Shown here: positions 1 through 26,928 of the stretch, piece after piece
How the letters are laid out: each line of letters begins with the position of its first letter
Position numbering within the stretch: position 1 is the first letter of the stretch
IMG/VR virus record: IMGVR_UViG_3300042520_001746
Location: 1-26,928 of that record
Strand: one strand, 5' to 3'
Length of the DNA: 26,928 bases
Origin: a virus
Program-made: the position numbers and the translations under genes
The notes under the pieces: generated by a model
The model's database searches: none
The model's input: the letters and a program-made list of their open reading frames with translations, nothing else
Told to the model about the DNA's origin: nothing

Positions 1-524
1 CCACTTGAACCTGAAGTTCCACTTGAACCTGAAGTTCCACTAGTTCCCGAAGAACCTGATGTTCCGCTAGTTCCTGATGAACCTGAAGTTCCTGAAGTAC
101 CACTAGTTCCTGATGAACCTGATGTTCCGCTAGTTCCTGATGAACCTGAAGTTCCTGAAGTACCACTAGTTCCTGACGAACCTGATGTTCCTGATGTTCC
201 TGATGTTCCACTTGAACCTGAAGTTCCGCTAGTTCCTGACGAACCTGATGTTCCTGATGTTCCTGATGTTCCACTTGAACCTGAAGTTCCACTTGAACCT
301 GAAGTTCCACTAGTTCCTGAAGAACCTGATGTTCCGCTAGTTCCTGATGAACCTGAAGTTCCTGAAGTACCACTAGTTCCTGATGAACCTGATGTTCCGC
401 TAGTTCCTGATGAACCTGAAGTTCCTGAAGTACCACTAGTTCCTGACGAACCTGATGTTCCTGATGTTCCTGATGTTCCACTTGAACCTGAAGTTCCGCT
501 AGTTCCTGACGAACCTGATGTTCC
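1..524 (-). repeat. 254-bp near-perfect direct duplication inside the fibre array
   Basis: Bases 1-254 and 271-524 match with one difference (C at 48, T at 318), which is synonymous because both codons are Ser. The unit offset is 270 bp, exactly 90 codons. Left copy may extend beyond the window. The near-identity across a block much longer than the basic 9-base motif indicates recent duplication or gene conversion rather than ancient divergence. Confidence 0.9.
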
Positions 525-1745
525 GCTAGTTCCTGAAGAACCTGATGTTCCCGATGTTCCACTTGAACCTGAAGTTCCCGATGTTCCACTTGAACCTGAA
601 GTTCCGTTTGTTCCGCTAGTTCCTGACGAACCTGATGTTCCTGATGTTCCTGATGTTCCACTTGAACCTGAAGTTCCGTTTGTTCCGCTAGTTCCTGATG
701 AACCTGAAGTTCCGTTTGTTCCGCTAGTTCCTGACGAACCTGATGTTCCTGATGTTCCACTTGAACCTGAAGTTCCACTAGTTCCTGACGAACCTGATGT
801 TCCTGATGTTCCTGATGTTCCACTTGAACCTGAAGTTCCACTAGTTCCTGACGAACCTGATGTTCCTGATGTTCCACTTGAACCTGAAGTTCCACTTGAA
901 CCTGAAGTTCCACTAGTTCCTGAAGAACCTGATGTTCCGCTAGTTCCTGATGAACCTGAAGTTCCACTAGTTCCTGAAGAACCTGATGTTCCGCTAGTTC
1001 CTGATGAACCTGAAGTACCACTAGTTCCCGAAGAACCTGAAGTACCACTAGTTCCCGAAGAACCTGATGTTCCGCTAGTTCCTGATGTTCCTGAAGTACC
1101 ACTTGAACCTGACGTACCTGAGCTACCTGAAGTACCACTAGTTCCTGATGAACCTGAGCTACCTGAAGTACCACTAGTTCCTGATGAACCTGAAGTTCCT
1201 GAAGTACCACTAGTTCCTGATGAACCTGATGTTCCGCTAGTTCCTGATGAACCTGAAGTTCCGTTTGTTCCGCTAGTTCCTGATGAACCTGAAGTTCCCG
1301 ATGTTCCACTTGAACCTGAAGTTCCGTTTGTTCCGCTAGTTCCTGATGAACCTGATGTTCCGCTAGTTCCTGATGAACCTGAAGTTCCGTTTGTTCCGCT
1401 AGTTCCTGAAGAACCTGATGTTCCGCTAGTTCCTGATGAACCTGAAGTTCCCGATGTTCCACTTGAACCTGAAGTACCGTTTGTTCCTGAGGTTCCTGAT
1501 GAACCTGAAGTACCGTTTGTTCCTGAGGTTCCTGATGAACCTGAAGTTCCGTTTGTTCCGCTAGTTCCTGATGAACCTGAAGTTCCACTAGTTCCTGAGG
1601 TTCCTGAAGAACCATTTGTTCCGCTAGTTCCTGATGAACCACTTGAGCCATTTGTACCTGAAGTTCCTGACGAACCACTTGAGCCATTTGTACCTGAAGT
1701 TCCTGACGAACCACTTGAACCGTTTGTTCCGCTAGTACCTGATGA
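1..1745 (-). repeat. Tandem array coding for Gly-Thr/Ser-Ser/Asn triplets
   Basis: Low-complexity DNA built from 9-base and longer combinations of a few codon triplets, read on the minus strand as GTS, GSS, GTN and similar triplets. The period is always a multiple of three, so the frame of the fibre gene is preserved throughout. Codon choices vary slightly (TCA/AGT/AGC for Ser, ACT/ACG/ACA for Thr), and these variants form higher-order blocks. A short outlying piece of the same array lies at about 1920-1995, on the other side of the Trp/Tyr-rich module. Such tracts are prone to slippage and unequal recombination, so the copy number given here may differ between isolates or be an assembly compromise. 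Confidence 0.95.
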
Positions 1746-2858
1746 ACCGCTTGTTCCACCAGCAACCATAACTTCCCAATCAGGGTTAGAGTCAGGTGCC
1801 GCTTGTCCTGCAGATATAGGTACTAATGCAACATATGTTATATTATTATAAGAAACAACATCATTTACACCGTAAGCCGTTAAATTTGACCAACCACCTA
1901 ACCAATTAAATCCAAATCCTGAAGTTCCTGATGAACCACTTGAACCGTTTGTTCCGCTAGTTCCTGAAGTTCCTGATGAACCTGAAGTTCCTGTGGTTCC
2001 TGTAACAGTTACCGAAATATTTCCACCACTATCATCAGTTACAGATGCATTTGTGAATGTAATACCAGTAACATTTGAAACAATATTTGTTCCGTCACCA
2101 ACTTGGAGAGGACTACCTCCACCACCACTTGTAAACCCTGTAATTAAAACATTTGAACCATCACTATTATTTAGTGTCAATTCTCCCAATCCACTATTGT
2201 AAGTTCCACCTGTTACAGTACCTGTAAATCCTGTTATTGATAAAGTACCACCTGTATTATTATAAAGTTCTAAAGTTGTTGACGCAGAAAAATATGTACC
2301 ACCCGTAATTTCGGTATCTGTACCATAAAAGACTCTCCATCTTGCATTATTTCTTGTTACACCACTAACACCTTCAATTGTTGACCCTGTCCAAGCATTA
2401 ATAAAGTTTATACCCGCTTCAGAACGGTCATTAACAGTTGTTGTATAAGTTGTTTGAGTTTTAGCCGAATTACCTGTCAAACCAGAAAGAGCATCCCACA
2501 AATCTTCATAGTTTGGTATGGTATATTGATAAACAGTATCTGTTTCTTGTACAAAAACTTGCATACCAAGTCTTCTACGTCCTGATGAAATATTATCAGA
2601 ATTTAACGTTAGAATATCTCTAGAAAACGCAGTACCAAGACCCTTTGTAAATTGAATTGGTATTGTATTTCCCGAATAATTTACAGGTCCAGATACAGTT
2701 CCACCTAGTGTCCACTCTAAATCTGTGAGGTAATAAACCTCCATATAACCACCTGTTTGTAAAACAGAGAAATTGGTACCAAAAGTTGATGTTCTAGCAA
2801 CACTCTCGGAGCCAGATAATTGAGAGCTCGTTATTGGGTTTCTATATTGGAATGCCAT
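1..2858 (-). CDS. Giant collagen-like (Gly-X-Y) tail-fibre protein, 3' end cut by the window
   Basis: The reading frame opens at ATG 2858 (MAFQYRNPITSSQ...) and stays open to base 1, giving 952 whole codons without a stop, so the C-terminus lies outside the window. Residues 1 to about 285 form a non-repetitive N-terminal head rich in Thr, Gly and Ser, likely the virion-attachment part, and include a GGTYNSGLGELTL-type stretch of a kind common in phage fibre proteins. A short run of Gly-Thr-Ser triplets follows, then a Trp/Tyr-rich module (about residues 313-366), then about 580 residues of Gly-X-Y triplets with X mostly Thr or Ser and Y Ser or Asn. Gly every third residue suggests a collagen-like rod, although proline is absent, so thermal stability would have to come from elsewhere. 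Position at the end of the structural cluster, after other repeat-rich proteins, supports a host-contact fibre. The receptor-binding tip is not visible. A TATTTAT box lies 11 nt before the start; no Shine-Dalgarno is seen. Confidence 0.85.
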   Translation of the reverse strand, partial: MAFQYRNPITSSQLSGSESVARTSTFGTNFSVLQTGGYMEVYYLTDLEWTLGGTVSGPVNYSGNTIPIQFTKGLGTAFSRDILTLNSDNISSGRRRLGMQVFVQETDTVYQYTIPNYEDLWDALSGLTGNSAKTQTTYTTTVNDRSEAGINFINAWTGSTIEGVSGVTRNNARWRVFYGTDTEITGGTYFSASTTLELYNNTGGTLSITGFTGTVTGGTYNSGLGELTLNNSDGSNVLITGFTSGGGGSPLQVGDGTNIVSNVTGITFTNASVTDDSGGNISVTVTGTTGTSGSSGTSGTSGTNGSSGSSGTSGFGFNWLGGWSNLTAYGVNDVVSYNNITYVALVPISAGQAAPDSNPDWEVMVAGGTSGSSGTSGTNGSSGSSGTSGTNGSSGSSGTSGTNGSSGSSGTSGTNGSSGTSGTSGTSGSSGTSGTNGTSGSSGTSGTNGTSGSSGTSGTNGTSGSSGTSGTSGSSGTSGTSGSSGTSGTNGTSGSSGTSGTSGSSGTSGTNGTSGSSGTSGTSGSSGTSGTNGTSGSSGTSGTSGSSGTSGTSGTSGSSGTSGTSGSSGSSGTSGTSGSSGTSGSSGTSGTSGTSGTSGSSGTSGTSGSSGTSGTSGSSGTSGTSGSSGTSGTSGSSGTSGTSGSSGTSGTSGSSGTSGSSGTSGTSGSSGTSGTSGSSGTSGTSGTSGSSGTSGTSGSSGTSGTSGSSGTSGTNGTSGSSGTSGTNGTSGSSGTSGTSGTSGSSGTSGTNGTSGSSGTSGTSGSSGTSGTSGSSGTSGTSGSSGTSGTSGSSGTSGTSGTSGSSGTSGTSGTSGSSGTSGTSGSSGTSGTSGTSGSSGTSGTSGSSGTSGTSGSSGTSGSSGTSGTSGTSGSSGTSGTSGSSGTSGTSGTSGSSGTSGTSGTSGSSGTSGTSGSSGTSGTSGTSGSSGTSGTSGSSGTSGTSGSSGTSGSS
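1761..1922 (-). other. CBM5/12-like Trp/Tyr-rich module embedded in the fibre
   Basis: Between the short and the long Gly-X-Y arrays the fibre frame encodes about 54 non-repetitive residues containing W..LTAYGVNDVVSYNNITYVAL and ending P.SNPDWEVM. The spacing of aromatic residues (W-x(n)-Y-x-x-x-D-V-V-x-Y-x-x-x-x-Y, then P-x-x-N-x-x-W) matches the small chitin/cellulose-binding fold of carbohydrate-binding module families 5/12, often found in phage tail fibres. Sugar binding is inferred from this pattern only. It interrupts the rod like a bead, so it could be a side-binding module. Confidence 0.6.
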
Positions 2859-13983: not shown

Positions 13984-15664
13984 CTACGGCAGGTTGTGTT
14001 GCAATGTTTAATCCTCCAAGGATGTCTTGATAGTTTGTACCCTCAGGTATTAATCTAAACACATAATCCCTGTAAGGATAATGAGCTCTATTCAAATAAG
14101 GATAGTTTACACCTCTATCTAAATTATCAAACTCACCATATAAATAAGGCTCCCTCCATCTAAACTCTTGGTCTATGGTAGAATAAAACGCATAACTTGG
14201 GATGTTTTCAGAATTGTTCTGTGGTGCGGTTTCAACGTAATCAGAAAATACTCTCAAGGTTAATGGAACGTGAGGTACATAATAGTAACCCATGGCATTT
14301 GGATTTGGGGTTGATTCTGTTTTAAACACATCTTGGTTGAATTTAATTTTATGAATCAACGGTGAAATAACTCTTTCAACTTGTTCATAATCATTCCACT
14401 CACAAAAATCACCGTCTAATAAATCTCCAACTTTTAATACTTGATTGTAATAAAATGTTTCAGTTGTTCCGCTAGTTTTAGTGTAACTATTAACAGGTAT
14501 ATTCGTAAAAGAATATTGGTTATTATCTGACCACCAAGTACTAACGTCTTTAGTTATATTAAATCCCCAACCTATTTTGAGCCCCACACCATTAAATGAC
14601 TTGTTAAAGTATCCACTATATCCTTTGTTGACAACCGATAAAAATATCTCACCGACAGGACGATTTCTGTTGTCCGTAATCCCACTAAGAATCAATTCTT
14701 TTTTCAATGTAACATCGTAAGTATTTGATGATGTTTTCGTTGAGACTCTTGTCTGTTGATTTGGTGTAATAGAACTGAACTCTAATTTTTTCTGATTATT
14801 GAATGGGTTGAGTTCAAATCCAGTTTTTGTTACATCAACTTCATTCTGTGTAAATAAAACTCTGTTTTTTCTAACATAATATTTTGACCTTGTCTCCAAA
14901 TTTGATGGGTTGGAAACTCTTTTAAAAGTCCCCATCCTTCCATTAAAGAATGTATTACCAGTGTAACCAGGGTTTATAATATTAAACACAAAATCAGAAC
15001 TTTCATATCTGTCATTACCTAATGATAATACCTCAAATATTGTATCACCGTCATAGTCAAATGATAATTCAACGGATTCAAATGGAGTTAGTCCATGTGA
15101 CATCAAACACTGAAAAGAAATAATATTAAAACCACCTTCTGAAGATGATGATATTATAAATGGGATACCTTCTTCAGCATTCCACTGAATGGTTTGTCCC
15201 GAATAGGTCCCTTGCATTGTAACACTACCATCATTTGTAGATGGGTAGGTTAAATAATAAGTCCAATTGTAAGTGTACGCACTCTCAGGTGAGTAATCAA
15301 AGTGATAGTCTGTTATTCGTGGTCTAAAGAAATCAAACTCATAATATTGTGGGTAACCTCTCCACACACTACTAACCGATGATTGTTCAGGATTTACATA
15401 ATATAGATTATTAAGAAATGGAATATATTCTGTAGTTCCCGTTAAAGTATTATCATACAAATATTGTAACTTGAATGTTGGTCTGAACACCTCACAAGTT
15501 TGTCTCTCATCATCATATAATTGTGATAAGTTCAAAGAGGTGTTTCTAACAAACTGCGTTAACTCCTCTTGTGTTTGACTTAACTCAAGATTTACCTGTT
15601 GGTCAATAGAAGGTGCCGATTTAAACTGAAGTCTAGACGGTATAATTGTAAAATCACTCATCAC
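13970..15664 (-). CDS. Large structural protein of unknown function (564 aa)
   Basis: Starts MMSDFTIIPSRLQFKSAP (ATG at 15664 or 15661; the upstream gene's stop lies at 15654, so both give an overlap). An N-terminal helical part (NLELSQTQEELTQFVRNTSLN) is followed by aromatic, Tyr-rich beta structure, including many YxY and FxF patterns and a DYEQVERVISPLIHKIKFN segment. Nearly cysteine-free apart from a few residues. It overlaps both neighbours, by 11 and 14 bp, so it belongs to the same expression unit as the 1734-residue protein. A baseplate wedge role is inferred from context alone. Confidence 0.65.
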   Translation of the reverse strand: MMSDFTIIPSRLQFKSAPSIDQQVNLELSQTQEELTQFVRNTSLNLSQLYDDERQTCEVFRPTFKLQYLYDNTLTGTTEYIPFLNNLYYVNPEQSSVSSVWRGYPQYYEFDFFRPRITDYHFDYSPESAYTYNWTYYLTYPSTNDGSVTMQGTYSGQTIQWNAEEGIPFIISSSSEGGFNIISFQCLMSHGLTPFESVELSFDYDGDTIFEVLSLGNDRYESSDFVFNIINPGYTGNTFFNGRMGTFKRVSNPSNLETRSKYYVRKNRVLFTQNEVDVTKTGFELNPFNNQKKLEFSSITPNQQTRVSTKTSSNTYDVTLKKELILSGITDNRNRPVGEIFLSVVNKGYSGYFNKSFNGVGLKIGWGFNITKDVSTWWSDNNQYSFTNIPVNSYTKTSGTTETFYYNQVLKVGDLLDGDFCEWNDYEQVERVISPLIHKIKFNQDVFKTESTPNPNAMGYYYVPHVPLTLRVFSDYVETAPQNNSENIPSYAFYSTIDQEFRWREPYLYGEFDNLDRGVNYPYLNRAHYPYRDYVFRLIPEGTNYQDILGGLNIATQPAVDDCE

Positions 15665-18600
15665 TTAAATACTTTTGTTTAAATTTATCAAGTGCGGTTA
15701 ACCCAGTTTTTAACCCAAAATAAAAATGGAATGGTGCACCCACTAAAAATTTACTATTCCAATTACCAACATTTGGTGTAATTACACCGTTGTTATCTTG
15801 CATGTAAATGTAACCTCTCGCTCTTCTGTCATCACCTTGAGTATTTGAACCGATAAAGTATGTGGGAGATACAACATTTGTTCTATCCAAAACCTGATAC
15901 TTTCTTGAGAAGATATCATTTGTTTCTGTCGCCCATGTATTTTCATCACTACCAAATATTGTTGGATTAGTTAATCTTGGGAATAAATAAGTTAAGAACG
16001 AACTTCTCGGTGGGTTTTGTTCCCACTGATAGAATGGTACTTCTTGTGATTTAATACCGTAACTATATTGAATTGCAGAAGCTGCAGGATTTGGTCTAAA
16101 ATTAATTTTACCAGGTGTTAAGAAATCTTTAAACTGTAGGTCTTCTGTAGTTGAAGAAAAAAAGATTCCCATAACAGGTCCACTGATATTGTTTCCCAAT
16201 AATTGAACGGGGTCATCCGTACCACCAAAAGACTCATAAGCATCTGCCGAGAATTTAACAACACCATTTTCAGAGTTGATTGATAATAATTGTACTAAAT
16301 CACCATCCGCTCTAAATTCTTTTCTTGAAAAAAGAATATTAATAATACTACTATTAAGTGTTTGTGGTAATGTTGTTAAAGATATTAATCTAATAAACAA
16401 GTTATTTGTTATTCTTGATATAACAAAAAACGTTAAAATATCTGAAGTATCACCATAACTTGTTGGTGTAAGTTTATTCATTACAAAACCTTTGTATGTT
16501 GGGTCTAATGAAATTTCAGAATAGATATCACTCTTTGGACCCAAATTCATGATTGTTGTTGGGTATAATAAGTTCAAATCATTAATCTTACCAGCCGAAG
16601 GTGTTTGTCTTTTACCAATAAACCCTTTAGCAGACGATGGATTATAAGGGCTACTTCTCATGTAGAAGTTGTTACTATCGTCATTGAAGTAAACAAACTC
16701 TTTACAGTACGTTGTTCTAACAGGTTTATTCTGACCATCATAAACAGTTCTTGTTTGAATTGGTGGTGTGTATAATGTTCCGTTTACCCAGTTGTTAGTA
16801 AATGTTTGTGATAAAACACCTCTACACAACGCATAAAAGAATCTATACCTAACACCATATTCTGTAAATCCTAACAAATCTTTAGGTAATGAAACTAAAG
16901 GTTTTGTCATAAACCTATAACATCCATCATAAACTATGTCATTATTTTGACAGTCGGCTTTAACCCCAAAAGTTTTTCCATCACCACTATAACAATCAAT
17001 ACTAACCATGTTGGTACATGAAAAAGTTTCAAGAACATTCACAGCACCTGTTAAATCTGTGATGTCAGAAGTTACAATGTCAGCACCCGTACCATAAGCA
17101 ACAGTTGTAAAATCCTCCTGATACTGAGTGGTGATTTCATAAATGGTGAAACCTAAATTCTGTTGTAACACAGGAACAATACCATTCCAATTTGAACCCT
17201 CCAAGAAATCTGAAGACGGTAGTCTGTCAGTTCTCATTACATTTAAAATCTTATTAGAAATTGTAAGAGGTGTTGATTCAAATTGTGGTAACAAAGAAAC
17301 TGAAATATATTCACTATCAACTTGTGAAGGTTTTTTACCTTGACCTGTTGTCTTTAACCAATAAAAATCTAAACCTGAAACATCTTCTAAAGAATCGTAT
17401 TTACCATCATTGATTTGAGTATCAAAAAAATCGTTTTTATCTTTACTTGTTGTTAATACAACACCACTATTTGTTGGATATCCAAAGTAATCATCAACAC
17501 CATAACTCTTTAAAGTTCTACCACCACTATTTATGAAATTTTTCCATTCAGTATTTGCATCTAATCCACTATAGTAACCAACATTTGATGTTGTAAATGC
17601 TGAAAAACCGTTACCAGCCATAAAGAATTTACTCTCATAAAATATATTAGATTGAACATTGTGATTTTGAACTGACATATCAGTTTCTGTCAGTTTTTGA
17701 ATTGGAATATTAACTCTTGATTTAGTTGTAACAACAACGTCATCTTCATTTGTAAATCCAAGAATCTTACCAATACCATACTTGTTAGTATACAAAGGTG
17801 AGTAAGGGTCAACCCCTCTTTGAAGAATTAAAATATATTGATTTTCAAATCCTTCAAATGTTGTTCTTGGTTGATATCCTGTCGTGTACTTATCCCAAGA
17901 CAAACCTTGTTTCCTAGCATAGGTGACATTAACAACCGAATTTATTAATTTTAAAAATGAATTATATGTAGGTTGTAATTGACATACAGGACCCACAAAC
18001 ACAACACTACCATCACCACTATCAAGTGTTGGTGTTGCACAAGCACAAACCTCTAAAGTTTCACCAACCCAATCTTGTGCGGTTGTATCATATACGTTAG
18101 TTAGGTTAACATATTGTGTAGTTCCATCACAAGCCTGATATGAGAAATATGCGAATAATTGACCGACAGTTGAGTCGTCACATTTTACAACATACTTTCT
18201 ACAAGATGAACACCCTGGTTGTGCAATAAGATTAAACGCATCACTAACGGTAATTGCGGTAACCACTTGGTAATATTCAATGTCCGCAGGGTAATTATAA
18301 TTTGTTTCTGTTGAACCCGAACTTAAGTTATACGTCTGTGTTGTGTCATTAGTTTGAGATGTTGCGTATCTTACCGTTATCGGTCCTGGACCCACCTGTA
18401 AAGTAGTTCCACTAATACCTGTATCTGATTGAGTATTAGAACTGAACTTATAGTTATTGTCCGACGAATTTTCAGGGTTAACAAACGTCAACAACGTTCC
18501 TGATGGGAACGAAGATTGAGACATTATTGTTAAAGTATTATCAAAGTGTTTTACCGTTGCGTTTGATGGATTATCAAAACTAACAGAAATTCTATTGAGT

Positions 18601-20858
18601 CCGTCAAAGTATTTTTTTCTACTATTGAATTGGTTAACTCTCTGAGCCATCGGTAATGATGTTCCATAGGCGAAATACTTGTCATTATCTGCGTCAGGTA
18701 ATCTTGTCTCCTCAGACTCTGTAGATTTATAAACCCCCAACTTTTGGTTTCTAAAAATTCTTGAACCAACCGCCTGTGACAAAGCAAAAGATTGAACCGC
18801 AATATTATTATCTGAGATTGTACCTTTATCATCACCTTTTTCAACCTCATTAAACCTCAAATAACCCTCAGAAATGTTTTGATAATAAAGTGCAGGATTT
18901 GCTAAAGGTGTTAACAAAGATGTTCCACCACCTTCACTGTCACCGGCAATGGTGTCACCAGGTTTACAATCACAACCCTGACATTCAGGATATGTAATCA
19001 TTGGTAAGTTAAACGCCCCAAATTTAAACTTTGTAATTCTTCTAAATTGTGTTGTAAGAGTTATTGCTAATGCCGCAAAAAAGATTGCCGGTAAAAGAAA
19101 TAGTAAACCAGCACCAAATAGCGCCATCAAAGCTGCTGTAAGGGTGAAGAAAGTGTAAGATAAATACGATGAAATCGCTATCAAAGCAATTACAATAGGA
19201 ACCGCTAAATTATTCCACAGAAATGCAATAATATGATATATTATAAGAATCGGTGGAAATATGGTTTGGAATATTTGAAATATAATTGAGAATAAGAAAT
19301 ATAATAAATCAAAATTCTTAACCCCCTCGTTGACAGGGAAATTGTTTGTTGTGTTGGTACACTGATTGTCGGCAATATCTTTTACACCAATAAACTTACT
19401 TCTACCACCCCCCCTTTTATATTGGTCAATTAAACTAGAAACGGTAAAGACTTTGTTGTATTGTAACTCATAGAAAGTATCAAGACAATTAATGGCGTTA
19501 TTTAATTTCTCATTCTCAATTGCTGTGGTACTGGCATCGGTATATCCTGACCAATCAATACCAAAGTAATATGAACTTTTTAAATCTTTTAACAATAATG
19601 GGTTACTACCATAAATCGGGTCAACAGAGGACAACTGCCATCCGTATTCTCTGATGTTTGGAACCAAGTAATATGGTCTTCTAATTTGTTCAACAGAGTT
19701 TGGCGATTGTTGCCATTTGATTTTGAATCTGTATTTTCCTTTTGTTGGAATACCCACAGATGGGTCTCTTGAGAATATTCTCGTTCCGTCTTCAGATGTT
19801 GTTACATAATCCAAATTCATCGGGACTTCAACAACCCATGTACCATCCCCGTCAATTACATTACCTGAGTTCTCCAATCTATACTCTTCCAAGATGGGTC
19901 TACCTTCAGCATCCTGATTAATTGTTTGTCTAACGGCTAACACCTGACCAGGACCAGGGATATTCTGACACAGACTACCTGTATTGTCTTTTGGTTTACA
20001 TCCCCTACCTAATACACTTGGAGGTCCATCGGTTCTTACAGATGGTGCTCCAATTCTATACTCATCAGGACTTGAGAACATTGAACCCATGAATATCGCA
20101 GTTGGTTCAATATCAATATTAGCTTCTTCACGTAAATCAAAATCAACACGGTTTACCTCGGCTTGACATAGACTTGGGTCACCCCAAAATGGATTTACTT
20201 CAAAGGTCTTGGTGATGGATACAATCTGCGGTAAACTCTCCAAGTTGGTTGATGTTTGGAATCTGTCACCAGCAACTTGAGCTTCAGTTGCTCTACCCAT
20301 ACGAATCAAATCCTGAGGGGTTAGTGAGAACTCACCAATGTCACTCAAGTCCAAATCCATTACCATGGTTTGTTGTCCCAATGGAACACCAAAAATCATG
20401 TAGTCACCACTCTCGTTGGTCTTAACAGTATACTTGTAATAACGGTCGTAAACCGCAACCAAGGTCGGGTCTTTTAAAACCTCTTCTCTTGTTGGGAAAG
20501 TACCAACTACCGCATGTTTTGCGTAGGACTGCTCACTTGGTAATAAGTTATATCTAATACCATTGGTATCTCTATCGTTTGGTTGAACATAAGGATAAAG
20601 AGCAACAATTTGTTCGTTAAGTGCATCGGTTTCAGTGATAGGTACAAAGATTGAAACCTTTACGTTTGGAATACCTAATCCACCGTTGGCAATAACCCTA
20701 CCAACTACTACACCGTAGTCCGCACAGTTTCTTGTGTAAACATCATTCTGAGAAATTTGAAGAGACAGGATTTCTAAAAATTCAAAATCTTGCTCTAATT
20801 GAAACGATATATTTTTGTCTACACCTAAGTCAGTTTTTATCCTATATGATTTTCCCAT
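15654..20858 (-). CDS. 1734-residue baseplate-region protein with internal hydrophobic segment
   Basis: The largest complete gene here. Starts MGKSYRIKTDLGVDKNISFQ. Residues about 45-165 resemble a carboxypeptidase-regulatory/prealbumin-like beta fold (VVVGRVIANGGLGIPNVKVSIFV ... SGDYMIFGVPLGQQ, shown here in two parts). Residues about 518-602 are strongly hydrophobic and could span a membrane three or four times, followed by basic QFRRITKFK and a CxxCxC knot (C626, C629, C631). Another Cys-rich module lies at about 866-963. The C-terminal 700 residues are beta-rich. It follows gp6 where T4 has gp7, so it may be a wedge component, but it is longer than T4 gp7 (about 1030) and no clear similarity is visible. 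Ends with an 11-bp overlap into the 564-residue gene. Confidence 0.7.
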   Translation of the reverse strand: MGKSYRIKTDLGVDKNISFQLEQDFEFLEILSLQISQNDVYTRNCADYGVVVGRVIANGGLGIPNVKVSIFVPITETDALNEQIVALYPYVQPNDRDTNGIRYNLLPSEQSYAKHAVVGTFPTREEVLKDPTLVAVYDRYYKYTVKTNESGDYMIFGVPLGQQTMVMDLDLSDIGEFSLTPQDLIRMGRATEAQVAGDRFQTSTNLESLPQIVSITKTFEVNPFWGDPSLCQAEVNRVDFDLREEANIDIEPTAIFMGSMFSSPDEYRIGAPSVRTDGPPSVLGRGCKPKDNTGSLCQNIPGPGQVLAVRQTINQDAEGRPILEEYRLENSGNVIDGDGTWVVEVPMNLDYVTTSEDGTRIFSRDPSVGIPTKGKYRFKIKWQQSPNSVEQIRRPYYLVPNIREYGWQLSSVDPIYGSNPLLLKDLKSSYYFGIDWSGYTDASTTAIENEKLNNAINCLDTFYELQYNKVFTVSSLIDQYKRGGGRSKFIGVKDIADNQCTNTTNNFPVNEGVKNFDLLYFLFSIIFQIFQTIFPPILIIYHIIAFLWNNLAVPIVIALIAISSYLSYTFFTLTAALMALFGAGLLFLLPAIFFAALAITLTTQFRRITKFKFGAFNLPMITYPECQGCDCKPGDTIAGDSEGGGTSLLTPLANPALYYQNISEGYLRFNEVEKGDDKGTISDNNIAVQSFALSQAVGSRIFRNQKLGVYKSTESEETRLPDADNDKYFAYGTSLPMAQRVNQFNSRKKYFDGLNRISVSFDNPSNATVKHFDNTLTIMSQSSFPSGTLLTFVNPENSSDNNYKFSSNTQSDTGISGTTLQVGPGPITVRYATSQTNDTTQTYNLSSGSTETNYNYPADIEYYQVVTAITVSDAFNLIAQPGCSSCRKYVVKCDDSTVGQLFAYFSYQACDGTTQYVNLTNVYDTTAQDWVGETLEVCACATPTLDSGDGSVVFVGPVCQLQPTYNSFLKLINSVVNVTYARKQGLSWDKYTTGYQPRTTFEGFENQYILILQRGVDPYSPLYTNKYGIGKILGFTNEDDVVVTTKSRVNIPIQKLTETDMSVQNHNVQSNIFYESKFFMAGNGFSAFTTSNVGYYSGLDANTEWKNFINSGGRTLKSYGVDDYFGYPTNSGVVLTTSKDKNDFFDTQINDGKYDSLEDVSGLDFYWLKTTGQGKKPSQVDSEYISVSLLPQFESTPLTISNKILNVMRTDRLPSSDFLEGSNWNGIVPVLQQNLGFTIYEITTQYQEDFTTVAYGTGADIVTSDITDLTGAVNVLETFSCTNMVSIDCYSGDGKTFGVKADCQNNDIVYDGCYRFMTKPLVSLPKDLLGFTEYGVRYRFFYALCRGVLSQTFTNNWVNGTLYTPPIQTRTVYDGQNKPVRTTYCKEFVYFNDDSNNFYMRSSPYNPSSAKGFIGKRQTPSAGKINDLNLLYPTTIMNLGPKSDIYSEISLDPTYKGFVMNKLTPTSYGDTSDILTFFVISRITNNLFIRLISLTTLPQTLNSSIINILFSRKEFRADGDLVQLLSINSENGVVKFSADAYESFGGTDDPVQLLGNNISGPVMGIFFSSTTEDLQFKDFLTPGKINFRPNPAASAIQYSYGIKSQEVPFYQWEQNPPRSSFLTYLFPRLTNPTIFGSDENTWATETNDIFSRKYQVLDRTNVVSPTYFIGSNTQGDDRRARGYIYMQDNNGVITPNVGNWNSKFLVGAPFHFYFGLKTGLTALDKFKQKYLSDE
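19050..19307 (-). other. Predicted multi-pass hydrophobic segment in the 1734-residue protein
   Basis: Codes for residues about 518-602, beginning LLYFLFSIIFQIFQTIFPP and continuing through IVIALIAISSYLSY, LMALFGAGLLFLLP and IFFAALAITL. There is almost no charge over about 85 residues, enough for three to four helices. The segment is flanked by acidic/polar sequence on the N side and Arg/Lys on the C side. Nothing comparable was seen in the other virion proteins of this window. Confidence 0.75.
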
Positions 20859-20949: not shown

Positions 20950-22788
20950 TTATGAGAAAGAAACGTTCTGTAAGTTTCTTACCCTTACCTTAATATCTTT
21001 TTGTGGGTATCTAACCTGATAAACTTGGTTAGGTTGTGCAAACAAAGTATCGTCAACCGGTCTGATAATTCTTAACTCAGGGTCTGAATATGGCATTGAA
21101 GTTTCAGCCGAAGAATATTGTCCCCCAACTTTGTTATCAATAACAATATCAGATACGGTGATTACACCATTTTGACTTTGAACAATACTTCTAAGTTCTG
21201 ACAAATAAACGTTCTGACCTAACTGCCTGAATTGGGGGTCAAAATATGTAGAAATTCTATTAACAATATCACTAATAATTTGTCCTGAGTTTTGTGTTGC
21301 ATCTAACACAACTGAAATCTCCACACCCAAGTCTAAAACCTCTGCGGTTGTTACCTGAATATAGTCGTTCATCATTCTATAATTTGACAAATAATTCGCA
21401 ACGTTTTGTTTCAATGTGTTTGACACAATACTAGTCAATTTACCTGACGTATCATAAGATAACATTGAGATAACAATTTTGTTATTGTTTTCTGTGATTG
21501 ATACTTTGGCAGGCGCACCGAATTCAGCTGGCATGTTTCTCAATAAAGAGTCATAGTCATTAACGGTAACGGCTCTGTTCTGAGCTGCGAAGTTAAATGC
21601 CACGTAGTTTCTAACTTCTTCTGTGTTTGGTGCGTTTGAACCACCGATAGCTGCAGTAACGTTGGTACATCTCAATGAATTGATTACCGAACTATTAATT
21701 GTTTGTGAAGGACCATTAACAAAGAATGATACAGTTCCAACCTGATTAATAACGTTTGTACCTAAGTTTGTCGCCAAACCACCACCAACTCTATACTGAA
21801 CAAATAACGTTGCGTTTGGTGTCAATGTTGAACCTAATGAAAAGTTATTGGTAATGTTCTGAATTGTGATTGGAAAACCTAAATTGGTAAAGGTATTCAA
21901 TTGGTCTTGAGCTGAAGTTGTACCCCCACCAAAAGTTAGTTTATCAAACCCTTCAGGTGTGAATTCAGAGATGAATCTACTATTTGTTTGAAGGTATCTA
22001 CCTACCTTAATACCGGGTTGGTCAGACACTTTAGTAGGGTCTTCAATGAAGATTCTATCCTCAGCCAAAGCATCTACCTCAAACCATCTGTTTTCCAAAC
22101 CTAAAAATTCTGCGGCAGTAGGAACGTTAGTGTAGTTGGTTCCGTTCTTCAATAATACACTTGTAATACCAAGAACGTTTTTATCAGGTAAGAACAATTC
22201 AAAGAATGGTTTTACATCGGCTGGTGTGATAACTCTTTTGTAAACTTTGGTAATACCGTTTACAACAAGTTCTCTTTTTGTGATTGTGTAGTTAACTAAG
22301 TTACCCGTAGCATCAAAATTTGGAATCTTTAATCTGTTTGGGAAACCGGCGTAATTGTATGGTGATGAAAAATCAATGTCATATTGGTTTTCAAACACAA
22401 TACCCGCACCAAATATTTGAGAACCTCTATTTAGAATACCCAAATATCTTTCATCTTCCTTGTCACCAAAAGCTGGTACAGTGATTGAGAAATCAACTAA
22501 AGATACTGATGGTCTCTGACCCGGTATTTTAAGACCGTATGTTCTGGCTATATTATAAATTGATGACCTTTGTTGAGCGTATTGTAATACAGTCTCTTGG
22601 ATACTTCTATCAATGTGATAGTGTAGGTTGTCTGCAACCGCAGCATTCAAATCCAAGAATACCGAGAACACTGACGCGTCGTTGAAGTCCTGAATCAGTT
22701 CAGGATAATATGTACGGACATAGTTTTGTAACTCTATACGAATTCCTTCATAATCTCGTACTGTATATGAAATTCTATTGTTTGCCAT
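20950..22788 (-). CDS. Baseplate wedge protein, gp6 / baseplate-J family
   Basis: 612 residues starting MANNRISYTVRDYEGIRIEL; T4 gp6 is about 660. The N-terminal helix-rich part (YYPELIQDFNDASVFSVFLD, followed by LNAAVADNLHYHIDRSIQET) is the typical opening of baseplate-J/gp6 proteins: a motif that places an aspartate-rich turn before a long helix and then the AR..G region (YNIARTYGLKIPGQRPS). The middle is beta-rich and the C-terminal half has the VNDYDSLLRNMPAEFGAPAK stretch common in this family, followed by a ferredoxin-like region (VEISVVLDAT). Two copies of gp6 with one gp7 make each wedge's trifurcation in T4. It lies 7 bp after the gp25-like gene, the same order as in T4 and P2, which supports the call. 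Confidence 0.85.
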   Translation of the reverse strand: MANNRISYTVRDYEGIRIELQNYVRTYYPELIQDFNDASVFSVFLDLNAAVADNLHYHIDRSIQETVLQYAQQRSSIYNIARTYGLKIPGQRPSVSLVDFSITVPAFGDKEDERYLGILNRGSQIFGAGIVFENQYDIDFSSPYNYAGFPNRLKIPNFDATGNLVNYTITKRELVVNGITKVYKRVITPADVKPFFELFLPDKNVLGITSVLLKNGTNYTNVPTAAEFLGLENRWFEVDALAEDRIFIEDPTKVSDQPGIKVGRYLQTNSRFISEFTPEGFDKLTFGGGTTSAQDQLNTFTNLGFPITIQNITNNFSLGSTLTPNATLFVQYRVGGGLATNLGTNVINQVGTVSFFVNGPSQTINSSVINSLRCTNVTAAIGGSNAPNTEEVRNYVAFNFAAQNRAVTVNDYDSLLRNMPAEFGAPAKVSITENNNKIVISMLSYDTSGKLTSIVSNTLKQNVANYLSNYRMMNDYIQVTTAEVLDLGVEISVVLDATQNSGQIISDIVNRISTYFDPQFRQLGQNVYLSELRSIVQSQNGVITVSDIVIDNKVGGQYSSAETSMPYSDPELRIIRPVDDTLFAQPNQVYQVRYPQKDIKVRVRNLQNVSFS

Positions 22789-22795
22789 CTATTGT

Positions 22796-23266
22796 TTAAA
22801 TATTGATAATAACGAAATCACTTTGTGCAAACGCTAAATTGTCAACTGTGTAGTCAATCTTTACCTTTGCGGTATACTCAGATGTTCCTTTACCGGGAAC
22901 TCTATAAACATACTCTCTTGCCGTTCCTGGTATCGTGGTTCCTTTAGCCAACGGAACCTCTTCAGACGGGTCCGCAGGTTCAATTGTAATTTTATTAAGT
23001 AAAAGATTTGGCATGAAATTTTGGACAGAATCCCTAATATCCGCTTCTATTGCATCAAAAGTAAGACCATCATACGGTTCAAAAATATATTCATACAACC
23101 TTGTACCAAAAGTTGGTAAAAAATATCTTGAACCCCTTCTCGTAAGAATTAGGTGTAATAAGTCACTCCTTATTTGTTGAAACTGAGTTTCCGTTAGGGC
23201 TAAATAATCCCCTTGTGTTGAATCCACAAAAGGAAATTCTAAACCATATGTAATACCTTCAGCCAT
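22796..23266 (-). CDS. Baseplate wedge protein, gp25-like
   Basis: 156 residues; T4 gp25 is 132. The core LHLILTRRGSRYFLPTFGTRLYEYIFEP matches the gp25/P2 gpW lysozyme-like wedge family pattern (L-x-T-x-x-G-x-R-x-x-x-P-x-F-G-x-x-L-x-x-x-x-F-E-P; quoted here only to show spacing, residues about 37-64). The following LTFDAIEADIRDSVQNFMPN is the family's next helix. An insertion (EVPLAKGTTIPGTAREYVYR) near the C-terminus makes it longer. gp25 links the inner baseplate to the sheath's first ring. It heads the structural block right after the terminator, with TATTTAT boxes 5 and 32 nt before the start. Confidence 0.85.
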   Translation of the reverse strand: MAEGITYGLEFPFVDSTQGDYLALTETQFQQIRSDLLHLILTRRGSRYFLPTFGTRLYEYIFEPYDGLTFDAIEADIRDSVQNFMPNLLLNKITIEPADPSEEVPLAKGTTIPGTAREYVYRVPGKGTSEYTAKVKIDYTVDNLAFAQSDFVIINI

Positions 23267-23350: not shown

Positions 23351-25057
23351 TTATGACTCACAAGCCACACATTGTAAATCATTTAGATTTAACTTCTTCC
23401 TTGCGAAAGCTTGTGCTGAGTTCATAGAGTGTTGGTAATACAGAGTTTTAACTCCAAGTTGCCACGCATCAATTAGAAGTTTGTTAACGTCCCTTGTTGG
23501 CATGTCAGGTGAAATCATCAAGTTCAAAGATTGAGCTTGGTCAATGTAATCTTGTCTTACCGCCGCTTGGTTGATAATAGAAGCTTGGTTGATTTCCGCA
23601 AAGGTTCTAAAAACATCTTTTTGTTCATCTGTTAAGAAATCCAAGTGTTGGACAGAACCATCATACTTCTTAATACTATCCCAAGTAGCTTTATCATCTT
23701 TACCCATATCAACTAATAATTTCTTAAGAACAGGATTTTTGATTGTTACTTTCATCTTCGCAACATCCTTAACATAACAGTTAGACCAAATAGGTTCAAT
23801 TGACTGAGACACTTGACCCAAGATAAATGCTGAAGATGTTGTTGGAGCAATTGCGTTCAAAGTGACATTTCTTCTACCATAACCAACAAGTGTTTCAGGT
23901 TCACCAAAAACTTGAGCCAATTCTTCTGAAGCCTTGTATGATTTATCTTTAATTAATTTGAATACCTCAACATTCAATTTTGCGGCTTCCTTGCTGTCAA
24001 AAGGTAATCCTTTAGATTGTAGTAGTGAGTGCCAACCCAATACTCCCAAACCAAGAGCTCGTTGTCTTTTAGCGAAGTTGTATGCCTTTTCAAGATAAAA
24101 GAATGCTCTTTGACCTTCAACGGTACCGTTAGTTCTAATGTCATCAATTTTACCGATAAACTCAGTTACAACTGCGTCAAGGAAATGAACCATAGTCTCA
24201 ACCGCATCCGTATCTTTCCACTCATCATAGTGTAAAACATTCATTGAAGACAATACACAAACGAAAGACTCTTCCTCTGAATTATGTAATGCAATTTCAG
24301 AACATAAGTTAGAGTTATAAATTTTCATACCTTTTTCTCGGTATACTTCAGGAGCCTTATTGTTCATAGTATCTGTGAACATAATGTACGGATATCCAAT
24401 CTCACCTCTTCTTTGAATAACCTTAGCCCACACCGCTCTCTTATCAGGGTTACCGTTAACCATGGATTCCATGAATTCATCAGTTACAGTAACTGCGTGA
24501 GTCAAATCTTGGATGGGGAACCCTTCAGTTCCAATTTCCAAGAACTCCATGATGTCGGGGTGTTCAATTGGTAGATAAGGTGAGAATCTACCTCTACGTG
24601 TTGAACCTTGAGAAATATTGTCAACAACACTTTGGAATAGGTTCATAAAATGAACTGCTCCTGGTGCGTGTCCGTTGTCAGTGATTTCCGCACCTCTACC
24701 TCTAAGGTTACCAAAATAACCTGAGGTACCTCCACCCATCTTACTCATCTCACCAACTTCAGCCTGAGTATAAAGAATTGATTCAATGTTGTCCCCAATA
24801 TTAGAACCAAAGCAACTTACCGGTAGTCCACGTTTTTTACCAAAGTTAGCCCATACAGGTGATGATAATGAATACCATCCTTTACTCATATACTCGTAAA
24901 ACTTGTCCGCAAAACCAACCTTACCTAATAGTTTTTCAGCATGGTTCGCAATTACACGAATTCGTTCAAGTGGTTCTTCTCCTTCGCTGAGATATCCTCT
25001 ACGAAGAAATGTTATGGATTCATCATTAATCCAATCAAAAGGTTTTCTATTTTCCAT
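23351..25057 (-). CDS. nrdA: Class I ribonucleotide reductase, catalytic (alpha) subunit lacking an ATP-cone
   Basis: Reduces ribonucleoside diphosphates to deoxy forms for phage DNA synthesis, with NrdB. 568 residues, against about 760 for E. coli or T4 NrdA; the missing part is the N-terminal ATP-cone, not a truncation of the barrel. Catalytic residues are present: C82 and C267 (substrate-reducing pair), N250-L-C252-S-E254 (thiyl radical Cys with its Asn and Glu), Y540-Y541 (radical transfer) and the C-terminal redox pair C563-V-A-C566 ending CVACES. ATG 25057 starts 23 bp after the nrdB stop, preceded by an AT-rich leader with a TATATTTAC variant of the box. Followed by a strong terminator. 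No intein or intron interrupts it. Overall-activity control must come from the cone on NrdB. Confidence 0.95.
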   Translation of the reverse strand: MENRKPFDWINDESITFLRRGYLSEGEEPLERIRVIANHAEKLLGKVGFADKFYEYMSKGWYSLSSPVWANFGKKRGLPVSCFGSNIGDNIESILYTQAEVGEMSKMGGGTSGYFGNLRGRGAEITDNGHAPGAVHFMNLFQSVVDNISQGSTRRGRFSPYLPIEHPDIMEFLEIGTEGFPIQDLTHAVTVTDEFMESMVNGNPDKRAVWAKVIQRRGEIGYPYIMFTDTMNNKAPEVYREKGMKIYNSNLCSEIALHNSEEESFVCVLSSMNVLHYDEWKDTDAVETMVHFLDAVVTEFIGKIDDIRTNGTVEGQRAFFYLEKAYNFAKRQRALGLGVLGWHSLLQSKGLPFDSKEAAKLNVEVFKLIKDKSYKASEELAQVFGEPETLVGYGRRNVTLNAIAPTTSSAFILGQVSQSIEPIWSNCYVKDVAKMKVTIKNPVLKKLLVDMGKDDKATWDSIKKYDGSVQHLDFLTDEQKDVFRTFAEINQASIINQAAVRQDYIDQAQSLNLMISPDMPTRDVNKLLIDAWQLGVKTLYYQHSMNSAQAFARKKLNLNDLQCVACES

Positions 25058-25071
25058 AATAATTATTACTG

Positions 25072-25081
25072 TAAATATAGT
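25072..25081 (-). promoter_or_regulatory. Variant TATTTAT box before nrdA
   Basis: Coding strand reads ACTATATTTAC just after the nrdB stop codon, 14 nt before ATG 25057. It has an extra TA compared with the structural-gene boxes, so it may be chance in AT-rich sequence. Confidence 0.2.
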
Positions 25082-26370
25082 TAAAATAAATCGTTTAAAG
25101 TAATAGACTTTGATTTTTTACTGTAGTTTATACTACGTTTGTTAAAAAAGTCTGTGTGTTTTGTTGTTAAAATTTCGTCATCAAACCATTCGGTGGTTTC
25201 CAATATAACAGGGTTCACATCAAATACTTTATCAATACCAATAGCATTTAATGAAATGTTAAATCTATGTTTGATAAACTCTAATGTTTGTTCCTTAGTT
25301 AGGAAGTCCAAATCACCTTCTTCAAAAATCCATTCAACAATATCAGTCTCAGCTTCGTAAGCATCAATGGTTGCGTTAATTAAATCTTGAACTAATTCAG
25401 GTGTCCACCAACTTGGGTTTTCTTTTTTAATTAGATTCACTAAGTCAAATCCAAATTCTGCGTGAATGTTTTCTTCTTTAGAAGTTGCCTCAACTGCGTT
25501 ACTCGTACCTTTCAATACGTTTTTAAACTTATTGAATGACATAATAACTAAAAACTGTGAGAACAACGATACGTTTTCCACAAACATTGAAAATAATATA
25601 ACAGACTCAAAGTAATCTTGGTTTTCAATTGACTTTGAATTTGAGATAGATTTCTCCAAATACTTAATTCTTCTACGCATTGCGGGTACCTCAAGTAGAT
25701 TTTCAAATTCTTTATTGAGTCCAAGTACTTGTATTAGGTTTGAGTAAGCGTCTGCGTGTCTTACTTCAGATTCTGCAAACGTTGCTCCAACACTACCAAT
25801 TTCAGGTTTTGGTAACTTCTTATAAATGTCACCCCAAAAAGTTTTAACGGCAATTTCAATTTGTGAAATAGCCAACATAGCTCTTTGTACAGCAGACTTT
25901 TCTTTTTCATTCAAATGGACCTTAAAGTCTTGAATGTCAGAAGTAAAATTGAACTCAGTGTGAACCCAATAAGAATGACGAATAGCGTCAACGTATTGAA
26001 GCAAATTAGGATATTCATAAGGTTTTAAGTTAACTCTCTTGTTGAAGATATTTGGTCTGTGTTTAGAACGGTAAATGATATACTCTTTAGCAACATCATT
26101 CAAACCATTGTCCATTAATTTATTCTCAACCATATCATGAACCTCATCAACATGAGGTACTCTGGTCTTATCGTTTCTGAAAAGACTTTTCTTCGTTAAT
26201 CTTGATATTTTTTCAGCCATTTCAGCATCAACTTTATTAATACCCATCATCGCTTTTAAGATAGCATTTTGGATTTTGTCAGATTCAAATGGTACTTTAT
26301 CACCACTTCTTTTAATCACATATTGTGTTTCAACTTGAGTTAATTCATCAGAATTATCCATAATATTCAT
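25081..26370 (-). CDS. nrdB: Class I ribonucleotide reductase, radical-generating (beta) subunit with N-terminal ATP-cone
   Basis: 429 residues from ATG 26370 (MNIMDNSDEL). The frame is open further up to an ATG at 26487, but that would overlap the helicase end with 39 Lys/Asn-rich residues, so the internal start (or the ATG at 26361) is preferred; no Shine-Dalgarno decides. Residues about 15-104 are an ATP-cone (YVIKRSGDKVPFESDKIQNA), the overall-activity site normally on NrdA. Residues about 125-429 are the di-metal ferritin-like domain: E172, E202, H205, E265, E300 and H303 fit the six metal ligands, and Y209 lies at the tyrosyl-radical position (H plus 4). First ligand is Glu where E. coli has Asp84. 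Sits directly upstream of nrdA as one operon. Confidence 0.93.
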   Translation of the reverse strand: MNIMDNSDELTQVETQYVIKRSGDKVPFESDKIQNAILKAMMGINKVDAEMAEKISRLTKKSLFRNDKTRVPHVDEVHDMVENKLMDNGLNDVAKEYIIYRSKHRPNIFNKRVNLKPYEYPNLLQYVDAIRHSYWVHTEFNFTSDIQDFKVHLNEKEKSAVQRAMLAISQIEIAVKTFWGDIYKKLPKPEIGSVGATFAESEVRHADAYSNLIQVLGLNKEFENLLEVPAMRRRIKYLEKSISNSKSIENQDYFESVILFSMFVENVSLFSQFLVIMSFNKFKNVLKGTSNAVEATSKEENIHAEFGFDLVNLIKKENPSWWTPELVQDLINATIDAYEAETDIVEWIFEEGDLDFLTKEQTLEFIKHRFNISLNAIGIDKVFDVNPVILETTEWFDDEILTTKHTDFFNKRSINYSKKSKSITLNDLF

Positions 26371-26392: not shown

Positions 26393-26928
26393 TTATTGGG
26401 CGTTTTGTTGTTCTCTTTGTTTTCTTTTCTCGAGAAGTTCTTTGACCCTGTCTCTTTTTTTACCTTCTTGTTGTTCTTCAAACCCAAGGAAAGTGGTTGA
26501 CGATTCAGTATCTATCTCTAACAATTCGTTGTCAAATTTACAATTTTCAAAGATAATACCATCGGAACCAATACGAGATTTTGTAATCGCAATTGTTGCT
26601 AACTTTAATTCTTTTTGTTGAAGTGTTTTAGCAACTGAAATAATTACGTGACCAACCTGAGCCTTTTTGATTGAACCCCCCATTTGGTCGGTAGTTACAA
26701 CTTCAGAAGAAATTGATGAACGGTTACCTTGAGTTGCAGTCCATCCAACAAGATTCATTTCGTGACACATAGCCTCAAAATGTCTCATCACAGAACCTTC
26801 CGCTTTCCACTCGTCATTCCTTGTATTCTCAGGAACAACACAGTCAATGTAATCCAATGTAACCATATCAATTGGGCTACCATCGGCAACCATCTTTCTA
26901 ATTTGGTTTTTGATTTCATTCATTGTCA
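26393..26928 (-). CDS. Replicative DNA helicase, DnaB/gp41 family, C-terminal part (5' end outside window)
   Basis: About 178 codons are visible; the frame continues past base 26928, so the ATG at 26923 is internal. Features of the RecA-like motor domain: MVTLDYIDCV (Walker B strand with the acidic Asp), WTATQGNRSSI (motif H3, polar sensor Gln), DQMGGSIKKAQVGHVIISVAKT (motif H3a/H4 region, here quoted as DQMGGSIKKAQ plus HVIISVAKT) and ATIAITKSRIGSDG with Lys-x-Arg arginine-finger spacing. Walker A lies outside the window. The acidic-to-basic tail (KKRDRVKELLEKRKQREQQNAQ) may bind partners or DNA. It unwinds the fork for phage replication and lies directly before nrdB, coupling replication with dNTP supply. 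Confidence 0.85.
   Translation of the reverse strand, partial: TMNEIKNQIRKMVADGSPIDMVTLDYIDCVVPENTRNDEWKAEGSVMRHFEAMCHEMNLVGWTATQGNRSSISSEVVTTDQMGGSIKKAQVGHVIISVAKTLQQKELKLATIAITKSRIGSDGIIFENCKFDNELLEIDTESSTTFLGFEEQQEGKKRDRVKELLEKRKQREQQNAQ

What the first reader, a model, noticed from the sequence alone, without database searches (positions are those of the whole stretch)
25081..26370. ATP-cone moved from NrdA to NrdB in a phage RNR
The catalytic subunit has no ATP-cone (568 residues) and the radical subunit carries one at its N-terminus. This arrangement is known from ATP-cone NrdB proteins characterised in the flavobacterium Leeuwenhoekiella blandensis, where the cone controls activity by changing NrdB oligomerisation. 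Finding the pair intact in a virulent-type phage suggests acquisition from a flavobacterial host and retention of dATP feedback, which many phage RNRs avoid. Both subunits keep all recognisable catalytic residues.
Basis: partly seen in the sequence, partly recalled or inferred. Interest (0 to 1): 0.65.

Follow-up and report, generated by a model that had tools for sequence, protein, structure and literature searches.

The report
Phage ribonucleotide reductase with relocated on/off switch
A large uncultured T4-like phage group carries a two-part enzyme for making DNA building blocks, with the nucleotide-sensing on/off switch on the small radical-making part instead of the large catalytic part; this layout is already known from flavobacteria and other phages, so it is a well-conserved new member of a known kind with one small structural twist.

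Summary
[quoted passage not shown] adjacent NrdA (23351-25057, 568 aa) has none. The pair is a class Id (NrdAi/NrdBi) ribonucleotide reductase, closest solved relative Leeuwenhoekiella blandensis NrdB (5OLK, 58% identity). Metal ligands, class Id Lys and Trp, NrdA catalytic residues and the cone-cone interface residues are present, and the cone is predicted to fold as an ATP-cone.

The evolutionary reading is only partly right. Cone-bearing NrdBi in viruses was already reported (eLife 2018), and annotated Staphylococcus, Sporosarcina and Salicola phages carry it. The gene lies in a large all-viral clade (100/100) outside the flavobacterial sequences, in a fixed gene order (DnaB-nrdB-nrdA-gp25-gp6), so it is not a recent pick-up from a flavobacterial host. 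The cone is under strong purifying selection (dN/dS about 0.04), which supports a retained dATP switch; activity was not tested.

One real difference: throughout this clade the cone-core linker is exactly four residues shorter, and the arginine that contacts the dATP gamma-phosphate in L. blandensis is not conserved. New member of a known kind; modest interest.

The parts
25081..26370 (-). nrdB: class Id (NrdBi) radical-generating subunit with N-terminal ATP-cone, 429 aa
26056..26322 (-). ATP-cone domain (residues 17-105 of NrdB): beta-hairpin plus four helices
   Evidence: Pfam PF03477; AlphaFold2 and Foldseek
26053..26067 (-). cone-core linker (residues 102-106, SKHRP), five residues against nine in flavobacteria and in Firmicute phages
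25084..26052 (-). NrdB core: dimanganese site ligands E172, E202, H205, E265, E300, H303; class Id K176 and W179; Y209
23351..25057 (-). nrdA: class Id (NrdAi) catalytic subunit, 568 aa, no ATP-cone; C82, C252, C267, E254, Y540-Y541, C563-x-x-C566
25058..25080 (-). 23-base gap between nrdB and nrdA (beta-alpha order, probable operon)
   Evidence: sequence; order in relatives
26393..26923 (-). C-terminal part of a DnaB-like helicase, conserved upstream neighbour (cut by the window end)
   Evidence: phrog_19; synteny
22796..23266 (-). gp25-like baseplate wedge protein, conserved downstream neighbour
   Evidence: PF04965; synteny
20950..22788 (-). gp6/Baseplate_J-like wedge protein, conserved downstream neighbour
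   Evidence: PF04865 and phrog_219; synteny

Best explanation
nrdB and nrdA encode a complete aerobic class Id ribonucleotide reductase that the phage uses to turn host NDPs into deoxynucleotides for its own replication. NrdB (beta2) carries a dimanganese cofactor that starts the radical; NrdA (alpha2) is a minimal catalytic subunit with the substrate-specificity site but no activity site. Overall activity is set by the cone on NrdB: with ATP bound NrdB is a dimer and forms active alpha2beta2; when dATP builds up, two dATP per cone lock the cones of two NrdB dimers together (beta4), which holds NrdA in a non-productive position. The architecture, residues and selection are shown here; the manganese cofactor, dATP binding, tetramer and inhibition are inferred from the L. 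blandensis and Facklamia ignava enzymes. The gene pair is an old, fixed part of this phage lineage rather than a recent pick-up.
For: Closest solved proteins are class Id: 5OLK for NrdB (E 8e-157; 57.6% identity, cone 41%, core 63%) and 6DQX for NrdA (E 4e-203; TIGR02510 758.5 bits against cut-off 602). All six metal ligands, K176, W179, Y209 and T296 are present and invariant in 121 distinct viral NrdB of the clade. Cone residues K20, R21, K32, E82, M86, I98, Y100, R101 are 99-100% conserved; D79 and K95 are kept or replaced by E and R. Median dN/dS is 0.040 for the cone and 0.025 for the core (188 pairs). All 225 viral loci recovered have cone sequence, and the larger viral contigs of the clade hold exactly one cone each. 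NrdA and NrdB trees agree. The cone model matches ATP-cones, 5OLK first. The dATP mechanism is published for L. blandensis (PMC5794259, PMC8350387) and F. ignava (PMC6187632).
Against: No activity, binding or oligomer data exist for this protein. The linker is four residues shorter than in L. blandensis, and Arg102, its only gamma-phosphate contact, has no conserved counterpart, so the inhibited complex could be shaped differently or be weaker. The cone varies more than the core (mean entropy 0.68 against 0.34). The searches that brought in the viral loci favoured cone-bearing sequences, although a core-only query returned the same group.
Confidence: 0.8

Rival explanations
1. The cone is kept but re-tuned: with the shorter neck and without the gamma-phosphate arginine, the phage enzyme responds to dATP at a higher threshold, treats dADP and dATP alike, or forms another inhibited complex, so that synthesis continues at the high dNTP levels of a lytic infection. 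(This refines rather than excludes the main explanation.)
For: Linker length is strictly five residues in the whole clade (plus Salicola phage SCTP-2) and nine in 29 other rows. Positions 103-105 are variable (R105 is R in 68 and Q in 47 of 121). Lytic phages are expected to gain from weak dATP control (argued for cyanophages that lost the cone, PMC6370689).
Against: Nucleotide-contact and interface residues otherwise match L. blandensis. Linker length alone does not show a change of function.
Confidence: 0.25
2. The cone is vestigial or purely structural in the phage and has no role in regulation.
For: The cone changes faster than the core.
Against: Cone dN/dS is about 0.04, charged and interface residues are invariant or nearly so, and no cone loss was found among the viral loci recovered.
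Confidence: 0.05
3. Recent acquisition of the nrdBA pair from a flavobacterial host.
For: The nearest cellular sequences are Flavobacteriaceae at about 60% identity. The nearest cultured phages by baseplate and terminase include Flavobacterium phage immuto. No Shine-Dalgarno motif stands before 14 genes, as expected of a Bacteroidota phage.
Against: The gene lies in an all-viral clade (34 representatives, 100/100, stem 0.71 changes per site) outside the flavobacterial set; NrdA agrees; gene order is fixed across the clade. An ancient transfer, in either direction, remains open because the tree is unrooted.
Confidence: 0.07

Closest known systems
Leeuwenhoekiella blandensis NrdAi/NrdBi (class Id, PDB 5OLK/6SF5; PMC5794259, PMC6754362, PMC8350387)
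   Same: N-terminal ATP-cone on NrdB, cone-less NrdA, beta-alpha gene order, all metal ligands, Lys174/Trp177 equivalents, and cone interface residues D73, E76, M80, K89, I92, I93, R95
   Different: Only 58% identical; linker four residues shorter; no conserved counterpart of Arg102; NrdA lacks the N-terminal extension of about 35 residues seen in Leeuwenhoekiella
Cone-bearing NrdB of Staphylococcus Silviavirus/Sciuriunavirus phages and Sporosarcina phage Lietuvens
   Same: Phage-borne nrdB with cone followed by a cone-less nrdA
   Different: A separate viral clade (48-50% identity), with the linker four residues longer where it could be measured
Salicola phage SCTP-2 NrdB
   Same: Cone plus the same five-residue linker
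   Different: Very long branch, 49% identical; its NrdA holds an insert of about 310 residues right after the NLC motif
Facklamia ignava Grx-cone-NrdB (PMC6187632)
   Same: Class Id NrdB with a cone acting as dATP switch, beta-alpha order
   Different: Extra glutaredoxin domain in front of the cone
[quoted passage not shown]
   Same: Same metal site and minimal NrdA
   Different: No ATP-cone on either subunit

Membership tests
NrdBi / class Id radical-generating subunit (PMC6754362) | First metal ligand is Glu (Asp in NrdBk) and the remaining ligands are in place | tested here: met
   E172, E202, H205, E265, E300, H303; invariant in 121 viral sequences
NrdBi / class Id radical-generating subunit (PMC6754362) | Strictly conserved Trp (Lb W177), with the Lys three residues before it (Lb K174) of the characterised subgroup | tested here: met
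   W179 and K176, 121/121
NrdBi / class Id radical-generating subunit (PMC6754362) | Mn2(IV,III) cofactor, activated by superoxide | not testable with these tools
   needs EPR and metal analysis
ATP-cone NrdBi (L. blandensis type) | ATP-cone at the N-terminus of NrdB, over the curated cut-off and with the ATP-cone fold | tested here: met
   75.7 bits against 25.8; model matches 5OLK, Z 14.6
ATP-cone NrdBi (L. blandensis type) | Nucleotide-contact Lys/Arg of the hairpin and first helix, and the cone-cone interface set | tested here: met
   K20, R21, K32; D79, E82, M86, K95, I98, I99, R101; site roles from PMC5794259 and PMC9110341. Arg102 of Lb (gamma-phosphate contact, not a defining feature of the family) is not conserved
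ATP-cone NrdBi (L. blandensis type) | Two dATP per cone, dATP-induced beta4, loss of activity | not testable with these tools
   needs ITC, GEMMA or SEC and assays
NrdAi / class Id catalytic subunit | Full-length match to the family model and to solved class Id alpha subunits, without ATP-cone | tested here: met
   TIGR02510 758.5 bits; 6DQX over residues 3-567; no cone
NrdAi / class Id catalytic subunit | Catalytic Cys pair, thiyl-radical Cys, Tyr pair of the radical path, C-terminal CxxC | tested here: met
   C82, C267, C252, E254, Y540-Y541, C563/C566; the Cys residues, E254 and Y540 are invariant in 54 NrdA

The most novel reading that the evidence does not exclude
This phage lineage has re-tuned the NrdB-borne switch: the neck shortened by four residues (about one helical turn) and the loss of the gamma-phosphate arginine change the dATP threshold, the discrimination between dATP and dADP, or the inhibited complex, making a cone fitted to the high dNTP demand of lytic growth instead of the outright cone loss seen in other viruses.
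Probability: 0.25. Interest if true: 0.5.

Novelty: new member of a known kind. Interest (0 to 1): 0.3.

Why it matters
Published work holds that viruses tend to lose the ATP-cone, because of genome compactness or because a lytic phage gains from escaping dATP inhibition (PMC9669993, PMC6370689). Here a large uncultured T4-like phage clade, with 121 distinct sequences examined, shows no sign of such a loss: the cone was present in every viral sequence recovered, under strong purifying selection, on the subunit other than the usual one. That makes the question of whether lytic phages can want feedback on dNTP synthesis testable with a simple two-protein system, and gives a natural linker variant for dissecting how a cone on NrdB shuts the enzyme down. 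The architecture itself is not new.

Tried and rejected
Longer TTG start at 26487: rejected, because close relatives have an in-frame stop just upstream of the ATG. A second cone on NrdA or elsewhere in the phage: none in the window, and one cone only in each of nine larger contigs up to 172 kb. Integrase (PF00589) in the same contigs: none found, but they may be incomplete. A cone-less sister inside the window's clade: none seen with a core-only query; short matches lay at contig ends. Test that the bacterial rows form one clade: not rejected (AU p 0.31), so it neither helps nor hurts the transfer question. A viral-contig scan with the Salicola NrdB found one weak locus only. The 1734-aa tail protein has no tblastn match in annotated phages. 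The whole-protein structure comparison has a large rmsd (11.7) from cone-core orientation, so the cone was folded and searched alone. Contact residues for the two dATP could not be read from 5OLK coordinates with these tools; the published residue roles were used. PMC5794259 names residue 76 of L. blandensis NrdB Asp; the PDB chain sequence has Glu there by the numbering that fits every other residue.

Full report
What is there. On the minus strand at 25081-26370 lies a 429-aa NrdB with a Pfam ATP-cone at residues 17-105 and a Ribonuc_red_sm core at 112-385. After 23 bases follows NrdA at 23351-25057, 568 aa, with only the alpha-helical and barrel domains. The start at ATG 26370 is supported by relatives that have an in-frame stop just before it. 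Upstream is the end of a DnaB-like helicase, downstream a gp25-like and a gp6-like baseplate protein, so the window is part of a T4-type contractile-tailed phage.

Which enzyme. NrdB finds L. blandensis NrdB (5OLK) first among solved structures (E 8e-157), with 57.6% identity overall, 41% in the cone and 63% in the core. NrdA finds the class Id alpha of 6DQX over residues 3-567 and passes TIGR02510 with 758.5 bits. The six metal ligands (E172, E202, H205, E265, E300, H303), the class Id Lys176 and Trp179, Tyr209 and Thr296 are all in place. In NrdA the Cys pair C82/C267, the radical Cys C252, E254, the Tyr pair at 540-541 and the C-terminal C563-x-x-C566 are in place. The pair is therefore NrdAi/NrdBi, class Id by sequence; the manganese cofactor itself was not tested.

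Is the cone a working cone? AlphaFold2 of the cone alone gives a beta-hairpin and four helices with mean pLDDT 84.8. Foldseek ranks 5OLK, then P. aeruginosa NrdA with dATP (5IM3) and Prevotella NrdD; VIA-align gives Z 14.6 to 5OLK. The residues that hold the L. blandensis tetramer together, by the numbering of PMC5794259, are identical in the window (D79, E82, M86, K95, I98, I99, R101). Among 121 distinct NrdB sequences of the same viral clade K20, R21, E82, M86, I98, Y100 and R101 do not vary, K32 is at least 99% conserved, and median dN/dS is 0.040 for the cone against 0.025 for the core. This is strong purifying selection on the cone, which supports a retained ATP/dATP switch; regulation as such is inferred.

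What differs. Between the conserved YR at the end of the cone and the NIF motif of the core the window has five residues. Every one of the 34 viral representatives of its clade has five, as does Salicola phage SCTP-2; 29 other rows, flavobacterial and Firmicute-phage, have nine. In L. blandensis this stretch holds Arg102, the only protein contact to the gamma-phosphates of dATP (PMC5794259). In the viral clade the nearby positions are variable (H104: H, N, R and others; R105: R or Q). Four residues are about one helical turn, so the cone may sit at another angle to the core. Whether this matters is unknown.

Where it comes from. A tree of the NrdB core puts the window in an all-viral clade of 34 representatives with support 100/100 and a stem of 0.71 changes per site; flavobacterial NrdB forms another group, and phages of Staphylococcus and Sporosarcina a third. 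NrdA gives the same all-viral clade. The order nrdB-nrdA holds in all loci where both genes were recovered; among the 80 closest viral loci the DnaB neighbour is found upstream in 77, gp25 downstream in 59 and gp6 in 53, many of the contigs being short. The reductase is thus a fixed part of this phage lineage. The nearest cellular genes are Flavobacteriaceae at about 60% identity; in a sample of 100 genomes of that family 23 have cone-NrdBi, 6 have cone-less NrdBi and 71 had no match. A recent acquisition from a flavobacterial host is not supported; an ancient exchange is possible, and its direction cannot be read from an unrooted tree. Host: no Shine-Dalgarno-like motif precedes 14 genes, and the nearest cultured phages by baseplate and terminase include Flavobacterium phage immuto at 27-28% identity, but also an uncultured huge phage and a Microcystis phage. 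A Bacteroidota host is plausible, not shown.

What is known. The eLife paper that described the L. blandensis enzyme states that cone-bearing NrdBi is encoded by viruses and by bacteria of several phyla, Flavobacteriales predominating (PMC5794259). Burnim et al. note that cones on beta go with beta-alpha gene order (PMC9669993), which is the order here. Annotated Staphylococcus, Sporosarcina and Salicola phages carry the same fusion, and several hundred viral contig stretches encode relatives (489, 592, distant ones included). The finding is therefore a new, well-conserved member of a known kind. The points beyond the literature consulted are the scale and constancy of the cone in one phage lineage and the shortened neck.

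Limits. Some of the 225 viral loci are the same contig fetched by different queries; the selection analysis used 121 distinct sequences. Structure models carry no ligands. No biochemistry was possible.

Noticed in passing
window 3-2858 (-): Tail-fibre-like protein (952 aa, cut by the window end) whose residues 368-952 are an unbroken collagen-like G-x-x run, mostly GTSGSSG-type repeats; the repeat also opens a long antisense frame (1-1851 +).
   Followed up: partly
L163:6294-8963 (Salicola phage SCTP-2): NrdA of 889 aa whose class Id sequence is interrupted by about 310 residues directly after the NLC motif of the radical cysteine, which looks like an intein at the active site.
   Followed up: partly
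window, 14 gene starts on the minus strand: No Shine-Dalgarno-like motif in the 25 bases before any of 14 starts, with A/T-rich leaders instead, in keeping with a Bacteroidota host.
   Followed up: partly
window 15654-20858 (-): 1734-aa protein in the tail region with no tblastn match in 50,697 annotated phage records.
   Followed up: no
L166 (Rhizobium phage RHph_TM39), L167 (Tunturiibacter phage), L168 (uncultured phage): Phages with cone-less NrdBi-like NrdB, forming their own clade; in L166 sequence resembling the end of a cone lies in frame upstream of the annotated start, possibly a cone remnant.
   Followed up: no
G006:C1:133555-133815 and 136307-136567: A virus record of 160 kb with two ATP-cones, one in a 747-aa frame about 2.7 kb from the NrdB cone, perhaps a class III NrdD.
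   Followed up: no
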